DNA of 64,000 nt from assembly GCA_913056345.1 (NCBI GenBank), contig CAJXMH010000002.1, positions 1 through 64,000 of the forward strand. The letters run 5' to 3'. This document shows, in pieces, positions 355-29,939 of the stretch. Below the pieces are notes generated by a model, which saw only the letters and a program-made list of their open reading frames with translations, ran no database searches and was not told the DNA's origin. The stretch's first letter is position 1. The number at the start of each line of letters is the position of its first letter. The DNA comes from an uncultured Flavobacteriales bacterium. GTDB lineage: Bacteria > Bacteroidota > Bacteroidia > Flavobacteriales_E > Vicingaceae. The position numbers and the translations under genes were made by a program.

Positions 355-1059
355 TTAAGCTTTTAAATGAAATACCAGTTCTTCAATCGGTTTCGCCTCT
401 CTTTTTAAATTACAACACCAAAACTCCCGTTTGCCGTATTTCCATTTCTGTTGTTTAATTGGCTTCTGTTCAATTTGCTTTACTAATGTTGGTTTATCGA
501 TCCACGCGGCTAGGTAAGTGTCTTTTTCATAGCGAAAGGCCGCAAATTCTTGATATATCTTGTCAACCTCTCGGACTTCGAGCGGAGCCGAGAAGTCCGA
601 GAGGTTTCTTCTACTTTTCAACCACTCATCTTTTCGCAAGCGCAATTGTTTGAAAAAAAGCTGCACGTGCACATCGCCTTTCAATTCCGCTATGCTTTGA
701 GCTCCTCTTCGAATTAATTTGATATCCCGCTTTTCAGCTAAAGTCTCAAAGGTCTCATCCGCATCAGGAATCAGGGAGGTTTTTAGCTCCAAGCTCAGGG
801 GCTTCTCTTTGCGCTCAAACAGAAAATCTACATCCATACCGCTATTCTCATCAGCATGGTTGCAGGAATAATTTCTGATTTCATTTTGATCCAACCATTT
901 TCGAAAAGCCAATTCGCCCACATAACCCCTCAGTTTGCTATCAAAGGCCACATTGGGGTGACGGTTTCTTAAATTATCGATGAAATTGTGTGCCAAAGCT
1001 TGCTTCATGGCCTGCATCACCTCGGCTTTTCTCAAGGGTATGTTTAGCCAATCAAGCAT
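355..1059 (-). CDS. Type II-like restriction endonuclease with an in-frame palindromic insert
   Basis: A 234-residue protein that probably cleaves DNA as the partner of the adjacent DNA methyltransferase, whose 3' end it overlaps by 8 bp. A PD-(D/E)xK-type core can be read: Glu49 in GELAF, Asp76/Asp78 in GMDVDF, then Glu91-Leu-Lys93 (ELKTS) 15 residues on, which is the usual spacing of this nuclease fold. I do not recognise the specificity. Residues 152-165 (NLSDFSAPLEVREV) are encoded exactly by a 42-bp palindrome that looks inserted without breaking the frame (see the repeat entry). Whether the enzyme stays active with this insert is unknown. Nuclease identity rests on motif reading plus neighbourhood, not on a family match. 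Confidence 0.72.
   Translation of the reverse strand: MLDWLNIPLRKAEVMQAMKQALAHNFIDNLRNRHPNVAFDSKLRGYVGELAFRKWLDQNEIRNYSCNHADENSGMDVDFLFERKEKPLSLELKTSLIPDADETFETLAEKRDIKLIRRGAQSIAELKGDVHVQLFFKQLRLRKDEWLKSRRNLSDFSAPLEVREVDKIYQEFAAFRYEKDTYLAAWIDKPTLVKQIEQKPIKQQKWKYGKREFWCCNLKREAKPIEELVFHLKA
565..606. repeat. 42-bp palindromic element inside the restriction enzyme gene
   Basis: Two perfect 15-bp inverted arms, aacctctcggacttc (565-579) and its complement (592-606), enclose a 12-base centre (580-591). On the coding strand it is exactly 14 codons and stays open. The GC content (24 of 42) and the symmetry differ from the surrounding gene. I recall similar ctccgctcgaagtc-type palindromes scattered through flavobacterial genomes, but that is memory and not checked. 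I saw no second copy in this window. Confidence 0.85.
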
Positions 1060-2341
1060 CTTTTAATTTGAGTTGAAAGTAGCGCAGTTGGTTATCACTT
1101 AGGCCCTTTACTTTTTTGCCAGAGCGTTTTTTGTAACCTTCTATGGCTTTCTTGTTACGCGGATAAGTAATCTTTTGACAGATCTCGTTTTCATTATTGG
1201 TGATCAAGGTACAGCTTCGTTCGCCGTCATCTGCTTGGTTTTGTAGCATGGTAGCGTGCAAACTGCTGCCGGAGCCTGCAAAAAAATCCAAGACCTTAGC
1301 CTCTTTTTTGTCTAATAGGTCTAAGAAAAAACGAATCAAGGCGGTTGGTTTCGGATAGCTGAAGTGCTCATCTGGTAAAATGTCTTTCAGTTCATTGCTG
1401 CCTTTAGCATTGCTAAAATCAATCATGGCACGATGAGGGAGTTTCCGCACGCGTTTTCTATCTTGATTGTCTACATATTGGTATTGTTTAATGTAGACTT
1501 TCCAGCCTTCTTTACGCTGCTTAAATTCAATAAAATCGTTTTTTAAGCCCCATTCAAATTTTGCTTTATTCCAGCGCCAGGTGTTGGGCTTGCCAATTTT
1601 TCCGCCTGATTTGAGTTTACTGCCATCTGGTGCTTCAATCACATAATCCATGCTTTTGCTGTAGCTGCCGCGGTAATCGAGGTCACGCAAGTAGTACTTG
1701 CCTCTTTTGGCTACAAACTCATCGCTGTAGCGGTATTTTTTGTCACTTTCTACATCAACGGTGGCTTTAGCAAACTCTAGCTTGTCGATTTCTTTGGCAT
1801 AGCATAACACATAATCGTACTCAATGGCAACTTGCCGGCTGTCATGGCCGCTGCCGGCTTTGCACTTGCGAATAAAATTGGCCACGAAGTTTTGCTGACC
1901 GAATAGGCCATCGCAGAGGAGTTTTAAGCGCGCTTGTTCGTAGTCATCAATGGAAATAAAGATCACGCCATCTTCTGTTAGTAGCTGCTTGGCTTCTAGC
2001 AGCCGTTTGTACATGAAAGAGATCCATTTGGAATGGCGTAATTCATCTTCTTCATCTACATAGCGGTCATTGTATTTGAATTCTTTACTGCCTGTATTGT
2101 AAGGTGGATCAATGTAGATCAGGTCAAACTTTTCTTTTGCTTGATTCAGCCACTTTAAACCGAGTAAATTATCTCCTTCAAATAGGCGATGCTGAGGACC
2201 TTGCTTTCCAAGGCGCAATTTCTTTTTTTCAGCAGCTATGATTTTATTCTTGGCTAAGGCTACTTCTAATGCTTCTGCTTTCTCTTCCCAAAAGAGACCA
2301 GATTTTTGCTGAAAAGATTGAATAGAGGACTTTTTGCTCAA
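1052..2341 (-). CDS. Site-specific DNA adenine N6-methyltransferase (beta class, type III Mod-like)
   Basis: A 429-residue methyltransferase that transfers a methyl group from S-adenosylmethionine to adenine, protecting host DNA from the linked nuclease. The catalytic motif IV DPPY is at 78-81 (DPPYNTGS), and the SAM-binding motif I DFFAGSGSS comes later, at 352-360; this order defines the beta class. The central region (about 150-330), with many Lys, Tyr and Trp, is probably the target recognition domain. The sequence resembles Mod subunits of type III systems, but no Res helicase gene is present; a 234-residue nuclease follows instead, so a type II organisation is more likely. The upstream gap to proline dehydrogenase is 37 bases. 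Confidence 0.88.
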   Translation of the reverse strand: MSKKSSIQSFQQKSGLFWEEKAEALEVALAKNKIIAAEKKKLRLGKQGPQHRLFEGDNLLGLKWLNQAKEKFDLIYIDPPYNTGSKEFKYNDRYVDEEDELRHSKWISFMYKRLLEAKQLLTEDGVIFISIDDYEQARLKLLCDGLFGQQNFVANFIRKCKAGSGHDSRQVAIEYDYVLCYAKEIDKLEFAKATVDVESDKKYRYSDEFVAKRGKYYLRDLDYRGSYSKSMDYVIEAPDGSKLKSGGKIGKPNTWRWNKAKFEWGLKNDFIEFKQRKEGWKVYIKQYQYVDNQDRKRVRKLPHRAMIDFSNAKGSNELKDILPDEHFSYPKPTALIRFFLDLLDKKEAKVLDFFAGSGSSLHATMLQNQADDGERSCTLITNNENEICQKITYPRNKKAIEGYKKRSGKKVKGLSDNQLRYFQLKLKDA

Positions 2342-24790: not shown

Positions 24791-26983
24791 ATGATGAAAA
24801 AACTACTATCTACTTTATCTTTTGTGGTAGTATTTACGCTTGGTTTGCAAGCGCAATACTATTTTAACGCCATTAATCCTGCGGGACAAAACCCCGGGGG
24901 CTTAAACAATGATCCCGAACAACCTTTTGGCGCTGCGGGTGTAACTGCAGCTAATGGCTACACTTCAATTATTGCAAATGGCACCACAGCTTTAACTTGG
25001 TCGCCTGTGCAAACTATCCCCTTTCCTTTTAGCTTTAATGGAAACCCGGTTACTTCCTTCAAGGTGTCCAACACAGGGGTCTTAACGTTTACTACCTCGG
25101 CTACTACGGTGCCTCCAACGGCTAACACTACTCTTCCATCTACAAGCATTCCCGATAATTCGGTAATGGTGTGGGGCTTGCAGCAAGGAGCGGGTGGCTC
25201 GACTAATGATGGAGTAATTATGAAAACCCATGGTACGGCGCCTAATCGCCAGCTTTGGATCAATTTTGCTTCTTTTGGAGCTCCGGGTGCTAGCGGTTCT
25301 CAATGGACTTATTGGGGAATTGTTTTGGAAGAAACTACCAATAAGCTTTACGTGTGTGACTTAAGAACCTTTAATACTCCCCTAACACTTACCATTGGGG
25401 TTCAAATTAACAGCACTACGGCAGTTACAGTAGGCACAGGTGCTACGGCAGCTCCAAATACGCCTTCTTTTGTAACCAATGGAGGTAATGCTTCTAGCCC
25501 TGCTGATAATGTCTATTATGAATTTATACAGGGAACACCTCCTGCTGATAATGCTCAATTATCAAGTTTAAGCCTCAATCCAGTTGAATCAAATTCAAGT
25601 CCTATTTCAATCTCAGGTACTGTTACAAATAAAGGTACAGCTGTATTGAATTCACTTGAGGTAAGTTGGACAGCAGACGGCGGGGCAACCATAAACCGTG
25701 ATACTTTAACAGGTTTAAGCCTAGCAAGTAATGCTTCTACATCATTCAGTCATGGAGTAACTTGGACTCCTACAGCAGGTTCAACTTACACAGTTGAAGT
25801 TAGAACTGATAATCCAAATGGAGTTGCAGATCAAGATCCTTTAGATGATTCCTTAAGTACCGACGTTTTTGTTAATCTAGGAAATACCGTTCAGAAAAAA
25901 GCAGTTTTTGAGCAGTTTACAACAGCCGTATGCCAGTTCTGTCCAGATGGAGCTTGGGTAGCGCAAGAAATGGAAAGCAATTACGCCAATGTGTATACTA
26001 CATCGGTTCACTCGTGTTTTGGTGTAGATGCGATGACTAACACTGAGGCTTCGCAACTCTGTGCTACTTTGGGATTTAATTCTGCTCCAACAGGTATGGT
26101 AGACCGCACCCTATTTGACGGTGAAACTGATGTCGCTTTTGGCAGAGGCAGTGGCTTCCCTAACTGGCAAGCCAGCACATGGGCTACCAGAGCCTTAGCA
26201 AATTCACAAGCAGGTTCAGCGGTAGATTTAAATGTAACAGGTGCATACACTTCAGGTACAAGAAGCCTTTCTGTTTCTGTTGATGCTTCTTTAGTCGATT
26301 ACATCGAGCCTGGTACTTATACAGTGGGTGTGATGATCATTGAAGATAGTGTTAGAGGTACAACATGCGTTACAGGAGGCCAAAATAATTATTGTCAAAG
26401 CAACGCCTACAATGGTGCTGCAGGTCATCCTTTCGCAGGCCTAGGGAATCCTATTACAAATTATGTACACAAAAGGGTAATGCGTGATATCTTGCCAGGT
26501 ACTTGGGGAGCAGGAAATGTGATTCCAGCTAACTACGCTTTGAATACAAGCTATTCCAATACCTTTAATGCAACTTTGCCTACGGCATGGGATGAAAACC
26601 AAATTTATGTAATCGCTTTTGTAGCTTATTTTGGTGGTTCCAATATAGCGAACTACAGAATCTTGAATGCCGAGCGTGTGAAGATGAATAATTTGGTAAC
26701 AGGCATAGAAGCGATTGAAAAGGATGAGGCGAGCCTTAAGGTATTCCCTAATCCAACTGCAAACTTGACGAACTTGAGTTTTAACTTAAGTGAAAGCAAG
26801 CAAGTTTCTATCGAGGTATTTGATATTACAGGTAAGCGTTTGATCCAAGAAGAGATGGGTCAAATGGTTCAAGGTAATCAGTTCATTGAATTGGATGTTG
26901 CCAATCTGCCTGAAGGTTTTTACTTCTTGAATCTAAGATTAAACGATGAAGTGATCACCAAGAAAATCTCTATTGTGAGATAA
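24791..26983 (+). CDS. Omp28-related T9SS outer-surface protein, copy 1
   Basis: A 730-residue secreted protein. A signal peptide (1-22, ending LQAQ) is followed by an N-terminal beta domain (about 23-250), a CARDB-like adhesion/Ig-type domain (about 255-360), an Omp28 domain with a thioredoxin-like fold (about 365-640) and a T9SS sorting domain (KVFPNPTANL to KKISIVR). The Omp28 domain holds the CxxC pair Cys381/Cys384 in TTAVCQFCPDGAW and a cis-Pro-like SAPTGMVDR loop, so thiol-disulfide chemistry or disulfide-bonded binding is possible; no activity is proven for the family. The C-terminal half is closely related to copy 2 and the N-terminal half to copy 3. Confidence 0.88.
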   Translation: MMKKLLSTLSFVVVFTLGLQAQYYFNAINPAGQNPGGLNNDPEQPFGAAGVTAANGYTSIIANGTTALTWSPVQTIPFPFSFNGNPVTSFKVSNTGVLTFTTSATTVPPTANTTLPSTSIPDNSVMVWGLQQGAGGSTNDGVIMKTHGTAPNRQLWINFASFGAPGASGSQWTYWGIVLEETTNKLYVCDLRTFNTPLTLTIGVQINSTTAVTVGTGATAAPNTPSFVTNGGNASSPADNVYYEFIQGTPPADNAQLSSLSLNPVESNSSPISISGTVTNKGTAVLNSLEVSWTADGGATINRDTLTGLSLASNASTSFSHGVTWTPTAGSTYTVEVRTDNPNGVADQDPLDDSLSTDVFVNLGNTVQKKAVFEQFTTAVCQFCPDGAWVAQEMESNYANVYTTSVHSCFGVDAMTNTEASQLCATLGFNSAPTGMVDRTLFDGETDVAFGRGSGFPNWQASTWATRALANSQAGSAVDLNVTGAYTSGTRSLSVSVDASLVDYIEPGTYTVGVMIIEDSVRGTTCVTGGQNNYCQSNAYNGAAGHPFAGLGNPITNYVHKRVMRDILPGTWGAGNVIPANYALNTSYSNTFNATLPTAWDENQIYVIAFVAYFGGSNIANYRILNAERVKMNNLVTGIEAIEKDEASLKVFPNPTANLTNLSFNLSESKQVSIEVFDITGKRLIQEEMGQMVQGNQFIELDVANLPEGFYFLNLRLNDEVITKKISIVR

Positions 26984-27006
26984 AATAGTCAATTAAATAA
27001 AATTGC

Positions 27007-27038
27007 AAAGGCCTTCTTCGGAAGGCCTTTCTTTTTTT
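27007..27038 (+). terminator. Rho-independent terminator after Omp28 copy 1
   Basis: A perfect 10-bp stem aaaggccttc/gaaggccttt with the stable tetraloop ttcg, followed by C and seven T. It lies 24 bases after the stop codon and marks the end of the transcript, so copy 2 needs its own promoter. Confidence 0.95.
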
Positions 27039-27062
27039 ATGTACATTAGCCCAACTAAAACT

Positions 27063-29939
27063 ATGGATATGAATAAAATACGAACTAAATTATTGCTCTT
27101 TTTAATGGCTTTGATGGCCGTAAACATGGCGGAAGCTCAAGTTATCTTGAATGAAGACTTTAATGGAGCTACTCCTTTGGCCAACTGGACCTTGGTCAAT
27201 GTAGATAACCTCACTCCTGCAGCCAATGTGAATTATGTAACCAACGCTTGGGTAATTCGGGAAGACTTCGACACCACAGGTCAAGGTGATTTTACTGCCG
27301 TTAGTACTTCTTGGTATACTCCTGCAGGTGCAGCAGATGATTACATGATCAGTCCTGTGATCAATACAGGTACAGCCACCGTGCTTGAATGGGATGCTAA
27401 AGCACAAGATGCTTCTTTCCCTGATGGCTATGAAGTACGCATCTCTACTACCGGCCCAACGGTTGCAGGCCTATTGGCTAATCCACCACTTTATTCAACT
27501 ACTGCTGAAAATGCTAGTTGGACAAGAAGATCATTGAACTTAAGTGCATACGCCAATGATACGGTTCGAATAGCCTTTCGGAATAATTCCAATGATCAAT
27601 TTTTGTTATTGATTGATAATGTAAAACTGTTTGATCCACCTAGTGCAGATGCTAGCATTGCTTCCATTGATGCGCCAGTGACAAGCTGTAACAACAGCGC
27701 AGCCGATAGTGTACGCATTACCATTTCTAATGCAGGTGCTAGTCCGCTTACTTCAGTGCCGGTTGGCTTTCAATTGAATAGCGGAGCTGTAGTAAGTGAA
27801 ACCTACTCAGGAAACATTGCTCCGGGAGCTACCGATACATACACCTTTCAAACGGCAACAGTAAACCTTGCGACACCTGCTACTTATAATTTAAAAGCTT
27901 TTACAGCTTTAGCAAGTGACGGTAACACCAATAATGATTCACTTACTTCCTCCATTACAAGTATCCCTGTGATCAGTACCATTCCTTATACAGAAGACTT
28001 TGAAGCTGGTCCTGGTGGTTGGGTAAGCTATGGAGCTAATTCATCTTGGACGCATGGAGCTCCAGCCGGAGTTTACATTTCATCTGCTGCAGGTGGAACC
28101 AATGCTTGGGTAACCAATTTAAGTGGTGATTACAATAACAATGAAACCTCTTACCTAGAGTCACCTTGTTTTGATTTTTCTACTTTGACTACTGATCCGG
28201 TTATGAACTTTTCTCACATCTTTAACACGGAAACTGATTGGGATGAAGGTTGGGTTGAACTCTCAACTGATGGTGGAGTGAGCTGGACTAAACTAGTTGA
28301 TAATGGAGCCGCTACCAATTGGTATAACGATTTGGCCAATGATTGGTGGGAAGGGAATTCTTCAGCAGGCACAGGCTCATGGGTTACTGCTAATAATTCT
28401 TTAACCGGAGCTGCAGGCTCGGCTTCAGTTAAAGTGAGGTTTGTGATGAGTTCTGATGGTTCCATCACTTTTGAAGGTTTTGGGGTAGATGATATCAATA
28501 TTGCTCCTCCTGCATCAGAAGATGTTGAGTTGACTTCAGTGAACTTAACGACTACTATGGTGGCTACCAGTCCTATTACCATTAGTGGTACCATCACGAA
28601 TCGAGGATCGAATGTATTGAATACTGTTGAAATCAATTGGACTGCAGATGGAGGCACGACGATTAATCGAGACACTTTAACCGGATTGGGCTTAGCCAAT
28701 GGGGCTTCGACTAGTTTTAGTCATCAAACTGCTTGGAATGCAACTCCTTCACCTACAACCGTCTTGGTGGAAGTTGAAGCTGTTGAACCAAACGGAGTAG
28801 CTGATCCGCTGCCAGCCAACAATGACATCAATACCACGGTATTAGCTGTTTTAGGTAATACGGTGCAGAAAAATGCTGTTTTTGAGCAGTTTACCACTGC
28901 AGGCTGTCAGTTTTGTCCCGATGGAGCATGGGTAGCGCAGCAAATGGAGACTAATTATGCCAATGTCTATACCACATCTGTTCACTCATGCTTTGGGCAG
29001 GATCAAATGACCAATACCGAGGCTTCGCAACTTTGTTCAACATTGGGGAATAACTCTGCACCAACAGGTATGGTTGACCGTACTTTGTTCGATGGAGAAG
29101 CAACCGTGGCTTTCGGTAGAGGCAACGGTTTTCCTAACTGGTCTACTAGCACTTGGGCAACGCGTTCCTTAGCTAATTCACAAGCAGGTTCTGCGGTTGA
29201 TGTTTTAGTGAGCGGGGCTTTTACACCTGGTACTCGAAACTTATCGGTGAACGTTGATGCCTCTCTTGTAGATTATGTATTCCCAGGTAGCATGAATGTT
29301 GGATTGATGATCATTGAAGACAGTGTAACTGGTTCAGGCGCAGGTTGGGACCAAAGTAATGCTTACAACAATCAAGCAGGACACCCATTTGCTGGCTTAG
29401 GAAATCCCATTACGAATTACATACACAAAAGAGTATTACGTGACATTCTACCCGGAACTTGGGGTGCAGGAAGCGTAATACCTTCGAATTATGCATTGAA
29501 CACCAGTTACTCGAATAACTTTTCTACTACCATTCCAACTTCATGGGATGAGAGTCAGATCTATGTGATCGCTTTTGTCGCGTACTTTGGTGGCTCTAAC
29601 CCTGCAAATTATCAAATCTTAAATGCTGAGCGCGTGAAGATGAATAATTTGGTTACAGGAATAGAAGATTTTGCCAAGGATGAGGCTAGCCTCAAGGTAT
29701 TTCCTAATCCAACAGCTAACTTGACTAACTTGAGCTTTAACTTAAGCGAAAGCAAACGAGTATCGCTTGAAGTTGTCGATATCACCGGCAAGCGTTTGAT
29801 CCAAGAAGAAATGGGTCAGATGGTACAAGGTAATCAGTTCATTGAACTAGATGTTGCCAACTTAGCTGAAGGGTTTTATTTTCTAAACCTTAGATTAGGT
29901 GAAGAAGTGATTACCAAGAAGATTTCGATTGTGAGATAA
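27063..29939 (+). CDS. Omp28-related T9SS protein with two jelly-roll domains, copy 2
   Basis: A 958-residue secreted protein. The signal peptide ends at about 26 (MAEAQ). Two choice-of-anchor J/MAM-like jelly-roll domains follow (about 27-200, starting EDFNGATPLANW, and about 305-485, starting EDFEAGPGGWVSYG), with a CARDB-like domain between them (about 205-300) and another after (about 485-600), then the Omp28 domain with Cys615/Cys618 (TTAGCQFCPDGAW) and the T9SS sorting domain. The last 460 residues match copy 1 closely, while the first half is unrelated to it. Starts at 27063 or 27069 are both possible; an earlier TTG lies upstream of the terminator hairpin and is rejected. Confidence 0.88.
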   Translation: MDMNKIRTKLLLFLMALMAVNMAEAQVILNEDFNGATPLANWTLVNVDNLTPAANVNYVTNAWVIREDFDTTGQGDFTAVSTSWYTPAGAADDYMISPVINTGTATVLEWDAKAQDASFPDGYEVRISTTGPTVAGLLANPPLYSTTAENASWTRRSLNLSAYANDTVRIAFRNNSNDQFLLLIDNVKLFDPPSADASIASIDAPVTSCNNSAADSVRITISNAGASPLTSVPVGFQLNSGAVVSETYSGNIAPGATDTYTFQTATVNLATPATYNLKAFTALASDGNTNNDSLTSSITSIPVISTIPYTEDFEAGPGGWVSYGANSSWTHGAPAGVYISSAAGGTNAWVTNLSGDYNNNETSYLESPCFDFSTLTTDPVMNFSHIFNTETDWDEGWVELSTDGGVSWTKLVDNGAATNWYNDLANDWWEGNSSAGTGSWVTANNSLTGAAGSASVKVRFVMSSDGSITFEGFGVDDINIAPPASEDVELTSVNLTTTMVATSPITISGTITNRGSNVLNTVEINWTADGGTTINRDTLTGLGLANGASTSFSHQTAWNATPSPTTVLVEVEAVEPNGVADPLPANNDINTTVLAVLGNTVQKNAVFEQFTTAGCQFCPDGAWVAQQMETNYANVYTTSVHSCFGQDQMTNTEASQLCSTLGNNSAPTGMVDRTLFDGEATVAFGRGNGFPNWSTSTWATRSLANSQAGSAVDVLVSGAFTPGTRNLSVNVDASLVDYVFPGSMNVGLMIIEDSVTGSGAGWDQSNAYNNQAGHPFAGLGNPITNYIHKRVLRDILPGTWGAGSVIPSNYALNTSYSNNFSTTIPTSWDESQIYVIAFVAYFGGSNPANYQILNAERVKMNNLVTGIEDFAKDEASLKVFPNPTANLTNLSFNLSESKRVSLEVVDITGKRLIQEEMGQMVQGNQFIELDVANLAEGFYFLNLRLGEEVITKKISIVR

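What the first reader, a model, noticed from the sequence alone, without database searches (positions are those of the whole stretch)
565..606. A 42-bp palindrome read in frame inside a restriction endonuclease gene
The two 15-bp perfect arms and a 12-base centre are exactly 14 codons (NLSDFSAPLEVREV), beginning and ending on codon boundaries, and the frame stays open. This looks like a mobile or REP-type palindrome that can insert into coding DNA as a protein-compatible peptide, comparable to the Rickettsia palindromic elements. It sits beyond the putative catalytic PD-(D/E)xK core (76-93), so activity may survive. Established: palindromic elements in coding genes are known in Rickettsia. Inference: that this is the same kind of event.
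Basis: partly seen in the sequence, partly recalled or inferred. Interest (0 to 1): 0.6.

Follow-up and report, generated by a model that had tools for sequence, protein, structure and literature searches.

The report
In-frame mobile palindrome in restriction-enzyme gene
A short repeated hairpin sequence, part of a small family scattered in this bacterium and clustered around a tiny DNA-cutting (GIY-YIG) gene, has landed inside a restriction-enzyme gene without breaking its reading frame, as it also has twice in a phosphatase gene; in-gene hairpins of this sort are known from Rickettsia, but the link to this nuclease points to what may move them.

Summary
The 42-bp palindrome is real: 15-bp perfect arms, 12-nt centre, and the only stem of 15 bp or more in the window (none in 20 shuffles). 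Its inner 28 bp (CGGACTTCGAGCGGAGCCGAGAAGTCCG) is a REP-like element of this genome's own family. Close copies ring a stand-alone GIY-YIG nuclease gene (contig C29). Two copies sit in frame inside a SpoIIE-type phosphatase gene where homologues have no such insert. Homologous endonucleases (family Vicingaceae) lack the peptide, but the net gain is 7 residues, not 14. A relative (G011) carries a different REP core in frame at the same linker. AlphaFold puts the insert in a low-confidence loop. Across Bacteroidia, REPs of this class lie within 300 bp of 33 of 52 GIY-YIG genes but only 9 of 316 control genes, and the GIY-YIG tree predicts the REP's tag type. Alphaproteobacterial CGTC REPs, reported to lack a transposase, also bracket GIY-YIG genes. 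Best reading: a GIY-YIG-linked REP in coding DNA. Movement by the nuclease is inferred, not shown.

The parts
565..606 (.). 42-bp palindrome (14 codons, NLSDFSAPLEVREV, on the minus strand)
572..599 (.). REP unit CGGACTTC-GAGCGGAGCCGA-GAAGTCCG; its core (574-595) is shared with the C29 cluster and the SpoIIE copies
580..591 (.). conserved centre GAGCGGAGCCGA (11 of 12 match the class core GAGCGGAGTCGA)
565..571 (.). outer left arm AACCTCT, not shared with other copies
600..606 (.). outer right arm AGAGGTT, complement of the left
561..564 (+). TGTC directly before the palindrome; resembles the CGTC/TGTC REP tag but is probably coincidence, because the C29-type elements carry CGGT/CGGA instead
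355..1059 (-). putative PD-(D/E)xK restriction endonuclease (no Pfam, NCBIfam or PADLOC hit; best fold matches EcoRV-like enzymes, weak); conserved D76, D78, E91, K93
1052..2341 (-). N6/N4 DNA methyltransferase (PADLOC type III MTase models), overlapping partner gene, conserved beside all nine homologues

Best explanation
The palindrome is one copy of a small REP-like family (consensus CGGWCTTCGAGCG...GAGYCGAGAAGCCG). It inserted into a flexible linker of a restriction endonuclease gene and stayed because its sequence is stop-free in every frame, the net length change is a multiple of three, and the loop tolerates it. The family is linked to a stand-alone GIY-YIG nuclease (C29:36617-36916, same genome), whose gene is surrounded by copies. 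The likely working is that the nuclease recognises and cuts the hairpin in (single-stranded) DNA and this starts copying or insertion of the element. Shown: family membership by sequence, absence from homologues, in-frame copies in a second gene, GIY-YIG linkage and cognate matching. Inferred: that the nuclease moves the element, and that the endonuclease still works.
For: GACTTCGAGCG-N(0-30)-GAGYCGAGAAG occurs among 281 fetched loci only at the window, near C29:34050 and twice in the C1 SpoIIE gene, all of this genome; C29 cluster copies read CGGTCTTCGAGCGGAGTCGAGAAGCCG. Window and SpoIIE copy 2 share GGACTTCGAGCG and GAGCCGAGAAG. SpoIIE homologues have short loops at both sites. Endonuclease homologues lack the peptide; three separate length changes on the tree; G011 has CTGAGCTTGTCGAA (two exact copies in its genome, one of them here) in frame at the same linker. 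The insert loop has pLDDT about 64 in a model averaging 85.5. GIY-YIG linkage in Bacteroidia: 126 REPs within 300 bp (61 kb) vs 26 elsewhere (622 kb); 33/52 GIY genes vs 9/316 control genes, both sides 19 vs 0, P=1.6e-25. The GIY-YIG tree predicts tag type: 4 changes vs 15.6 shuffled, 0/500, with both types inside one genome (G000, G126, G234).
Against: The net change is +7 residues, so either 7 linker residues were lost or the outer arms are older sequence; the exact event is not reconstructed. The 15-bp stem is longer than in most copies and no other copy has the outer arms. Tag is CGGA, not CGGT. No transposition event, empty site within the species, or nuclease activity was observed. Linkage of GIY-YIG genes and REPs could reflect homing of the gene into REPs rather than mobilisation of REPs by the gene.
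Confidence: 0.8

Rival explanations
1. GIY-YIG genes are the passengers: they home into REP or terminator hairpins and do not move REPs; the REPs, including the one in the window, spread by another, unknown route.
For: GIY-YIG genes also sit beside unrelated terminator-like palindromes and in tandem arrays; homing into repeats would also give adjacency.
Against: Cognate matching of REP tag with GIY-YIG clade, also within one genome, and inverted bracketing fit a nuclease that acts on its own REP.
Confidence: 0.3
2. A local inverted duplication (template switch or fold-back) made the palindrome in place, without any mobile element. The net gain of 21 nt is exactly half of 42.
For: Net +21 nt relative to homologues; outer arms are unique to this site.
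Against: The inner 22-28 bp recurs elsewhere in the same genome with the same non-palindromic centre, which a local event would not give. It may still explain the outer arms.
Confidence: 0.07
3. The REP is mobilised by a RAYT (Y1 tyrosine transposase), as GTAG REPs are in gamma-proteobacteria.
For: One RAYT-like ORF exists in the genome (C14:4599; NF047646 60 bits).
Against: It is 129 aa from its first ATG, below the NCBIfam cut-off, and has no copies of this element beside it; the element has no GTAG/GGAG tag; GIY-YIG genes carry the repeats.
Confidence: 0.05
4. The hairpin is a regulatory element of the restriction-modification operon (RNA hairpin or binding site).
For: Stable predicted hairpin (-27.7 kcal/mol); sits in an R-M operon conserved in nine genomes.
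Against: Absent from most homologues at the same place and shared with unrelated genes.
Confidence: 0.04

Closest known systems
Rickettsia palindromic elements (RPE; Ogata et al. 2002, cited through PMC3733652)
   Same: Short palindromes in frame inside unrelated coding genes, protein-compatible, in tolerant places.
   Different: Different sequence and phylum; few coding copies here (window, SpoIIE x2, and two cores in a coiled-coil ORF); linked to a GIY-YIG gene; Rickettsia not examined here.
CGTC/TGTC-tagged REPs (Di Nocera et al. 2013, PMC3733652)
   Same: Hairpin REPs of alpha-proteobacteria and some Bacteroidetes, intragenic members known; the sister type brackets other GIY-YIG genes of this class and of this genome (C5:6454).
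   Different: The window element belongs with the CGGT/CGGA type beside a different GIY-YIG clade, with a 12-nt centre and longer stem. The paper says CGTC REPs lack a dedicated transposase; here they flank GIY-YIG genes.
Ssn, site-specific single-stranded-DNA GIY-YIG nucleases (Chenal et al. 2025, Nat Commun; from memory, not in the library)
   Same: Small stand-alone GIY-YIG nucleases with a cognate repeated sequence in the genome (Neisseria), as I recall.
   Different: I could not check which palindromes they list, nor whether mobilisation or coding insertions are discussed. Activity not tested here.
GTAG REPs with RAYT transposases
   Same: Hairpin repeats bracketing a small DNA-cutting protein gene in inverted orientation; cognate matching.
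   Different: GIY-YIG instead of Y1 HUH enzyme; no GTAG tag.

Membership tests
GIY-YIG-linked REP, CGGT type (defined here) | core GAGCNNAGTCGA with CTTC/GAAG arms | tested here: met
   19 of 20 bases identical to a C29 copy
GIY-YIG-linked REP, CGGT type (defined here) | CGGT tag at the 5' base of the inner stem | tested here: inconclusive
   window has CGGA, as does SpoIIE copy 1 and C29:34050 (copy 2 has GGGA)
GIY-YIG-linked REP, CGGT type (defined here) | family clusters at a GIY-YIG gene in the same genome | tested here: met
   five class hits within 300 bp of C29:36617-36916
CGTC/TGTC REPs (Di Nocera 2013) | unpaired [CT]GTC tag before an A:T-closed stem | tested here: inconclusive
   TGTC at 561-564 followed by A:T, but sister copies lack it
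CGTC/TGTC REPs (Di Nocera 2013) | 8-9 bp stem, 4-5 nt loop, CCA-like tail | tested here: not met
   15-bp stem, 12-nt centre, TCT follows, PMC3733652 Table 1
GTAG REP / RAYT | GTAG tag and flanking of a RAYT gene | tested here: not met
   no tag
Rickettsia palindromic element | in-frame presence in a coding gene, absent from homologues | tested here: met
   (net +7 aa)
Rickettsia palindromic element | same family in other unrelated coding genes | tested here: met
   SpoIIE phosphatase, two copies
Rickettsia palindromic element | sequence homology to a described RPE family | not tested
   no RPE sequence was at hand
Ssn nuclease (C29 GIY-YIG gene) | GIY-YIG domain, stand-alone | tested here: met
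   PF01541 E 9.6e-20, about 100 aa
Ssn nuclease (C29 GIY-YIG gene) | site-specific cutting of ssDNA at the repeat | not testable with these tools
   needs biochemistry

The most novel reading that the evidence does not exclude
Stand-alone GIY-YIG nucleases are the missing mobilising enzymes of CGTC/TGTC/CGGT REPs across Bacteroidota and Proteobacteria, including the kind that yields protein-coding palindromes. Each nuclease clade moves its own hairpin type, partly into tips of pre-existing inverted repeats, terminators and protein loops.
Probability: 0.45. Interest if true: 0.82.

Novelty: new variant of a known kind. Interest (0 to 1): 0.62.

Why it matters
Protein-coding palindromes have been known mainly from Rickettsia, with no agreed agent. 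CGTC REPs were reported to lack a transposase (PMC3733652). This case joins the two questions: an in-frame REP whose family is anchored at a GIY-YIG gene, and a class-wide, clade-matched association between GIY-YIG genes and REPs. It makes 'what spreads these repeats?' directly testable with one small protein and one hairpin.

Tried and rejected
RAYT as partner. Rfam family (none at the palindrome). Pfam, NCBIfam and PADLOC for the endonuclease (none); a PDB sequence search gave only an apolipoprotein at E 0.78. Profile search of homologue inserts with a REP HMM was too weak for so short a motif; the exact 14-mer count in the G011 genome was used instead. The insert of L018 (G006, +15 aa) resembles two decayed half-REPs by eye, but this was not established. 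The TGTC before the palindrome was first taken as its tag; the clade analysis showed that C29-type elements use CGGT/CGGA, so it is treated as coincidence. Library searches for the Ssn paper failed.

Full report
Observation. Window 565-606 holds a 42-bp palindrome with two perfect 15-bp arms and a 12-nt centre. It is the strongest hairpin of the 64 kb: the only stem of 15 bp or more, and none appeared in 20 dinucleotide shuffles. It falls on codon boundaries inside the 234-aa minus-strand ORF 355-1059 and reads NLSDFSAPLEVREV. All six frames are stop-free, which only 0.7% of random 42-mers of the window achieve.

The gene. ORF 355-1059 overlaps a type III/II-like N6/N4 methyltransferase gene, and this pair is kept in all nine homologous loci found, so it is an R-M operon. 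The endonuclease has no Pfam, NCBIfam or PADLOC match. Invariant D76, D78, E91, K93 fit a PD-(D/E)xK site, and the AlphaFold model (mean pLDDT 85.5) has EcoRV-like enzymes as its best, though weak, PDB matches. The palindrome-encoded residues lie in a low-confidence stretch between two helices (block 151-160, pLDDT 64).

Homologues. The linker between WL and IY is 13-14 residues in six homologues without an insert, 20 in the window, 28 in G006 and 31 in G011; a split pseudogene in G021 also lacks an insert. The tree needs three separate changes (one origin with losses is not formally excluded). So the window peptide is absent from homologues, but the net change is +7 residues (21 nt), not a clean +14. 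The G011 insert contains CTGAGCTTGTCGAA exactly; only two exact copies exist in that genome, and near-copies there have REP-like surroundings. A second lineage has therefore put REP-type sequence in frame at the same linker.

The family in this genome. The full 42-mer is unique, but its centre recurs. A stricter pattern, GACTTCGAGCG-N(0-30)-GAGYCGAGAAG, occurs among 281 fetched loci only at four places, all in this genome: the window, C29 near 34050, and twice in a 725-aa SpoIIE-type phosphatase gene on C1. The two phosphatase copies are in frame. Homologues read straight across with short loops (CSLEGSTLKYAGANN against CSLNLKGTSSARLPDGQGAEKPLLKYAGAHN). Two further REP cores are in frame in a coiled-coil ORF on C3 (RLSGVE twice). 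Most remaining copies are intergenic. In each copy the outer arms differ but are complementary; in phosphatase copy 2 part of the outer arms is sequence that homologues already have (TTAAAA...), which suggests insertion near a pre-existing inverted repeat (inference). The same may hold where cores sit inside terminator-like hairpins.

The nuclease link. The densest cluster of this family surrounds a stand-alone GIY-YIG gene at C29:36617-36916. Another GIY-YIG gene of the genome (C5:6454) is bracketed by inverted TGTCATGCTGAGCGATAGTCGAAGCAT-type elements. I tested this in 60 stretches around GIY-YIG genes sampled across the class: 126 REPs of the class lie within 300 bp of the gene (61 kb) and 26 in the remaining 622 kb, about 50-fold. 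With gene-level controls, 33 of 52 GIY-YIG genes but 9 of 316 other genes have one within 300 bp; 19 against 0 have them on both sides (Fisher P 1.6e-25). Arm positions pair far more than when arms are dealt anew (212 of 255 against a mean of 117, maximum 141). Two tag types exist, TGTC and CGGT-like, and the GIY-YIG tree predicts the type (4 changes against 15.6 in shuffles, 0 of 500), with both types in one genome (G000, G126, G234), so genome composition cannot explain it. In proteobacterial plasmids, 4 of 10 GIY-YIG genes examined are bracketed within 100 bp by inverted CGTC-tagged hairpins, of the kind described by Di Nocera et al.

Mechanism. Most likely a hairpin-recognising GIY-YIG nuclease cuts its cognate REP, probably in single-stranded DNA, and the repair or replication of that intermediate places copies elsewhere. 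Copies in coding DNA survive when they keep the frame and fall in loops. Family membership, absence from homologues, in-frame copies and linkage are shown; cutting, movement and retained enzyme activity are inferred. The alternative that GIY-YIG genes home into REPs rather than move them is not excluded. No empty site within the species and no biochemistry was available.

Known background. Intragenic REPs and in-frame palindromes are described (PMC3733652, and its references to Rickettsia RPEs), and that paper found no transposase for CGTC REPs. From memory, a 2025 paper on the Ssn family of GIY-YIG single-strand nucleases tied such a nuclease to a repeated sequence in Neisseria; it is not in the library, so how far it anticipates the link could not be checked. 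The window element itself is therefore filed as a new variant of a known kind.

Noticed in passing
G000:C1:23889-26063 (L243, L270): SpoIIE/TPR phosphatase gene with two in-frame copies of the same element plus two more REP cores; homologues have short loops there.
   Followed up: yes
G000:C3:741-1193 (L009): Coiled-coil ORF with two in-frame CTGAGCGGAGTCGAAG cores (RLSGVE); the next ORF may start with a translated REP array before its signal peptide.
   Followed up: partly
G009:C9:906073-910392; G013:C2:183601-186426; G009:C9:624695-626044: Tandem arrays of GIY-YIG genes (10 copies at 457 bp, about 8 at about 379 bp, 4 at 379 bp).
   Followed up: no
L110 (G006:C9), L112 (G006:C1): GIY-YIG genes flanked on both sides by direct copies of a terminator-like palindrome (e.g. 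ACAAAGCCCCGAATATCGGGGCTTTGT), suggesting the gene unit inserts at terminators.
   Followed up: no
L044 / L025-L026 (G021:C37): Both the methyltransferase and the endonuclease of this R-M system are broken in G021.
   Followed up: no
L150, L160, L166, L167, L173, L180, L183, L197: Many contigs end shortly after a GIY-YIG gene, as expected if flanking repeats break assemblies.
   Followed up: no
window 25858-29651: Two pairs of about 300-bp direct repeats, 74-76% identical, spaced about 2.96 kb, probably repeated protein domains.
   Followed up: no
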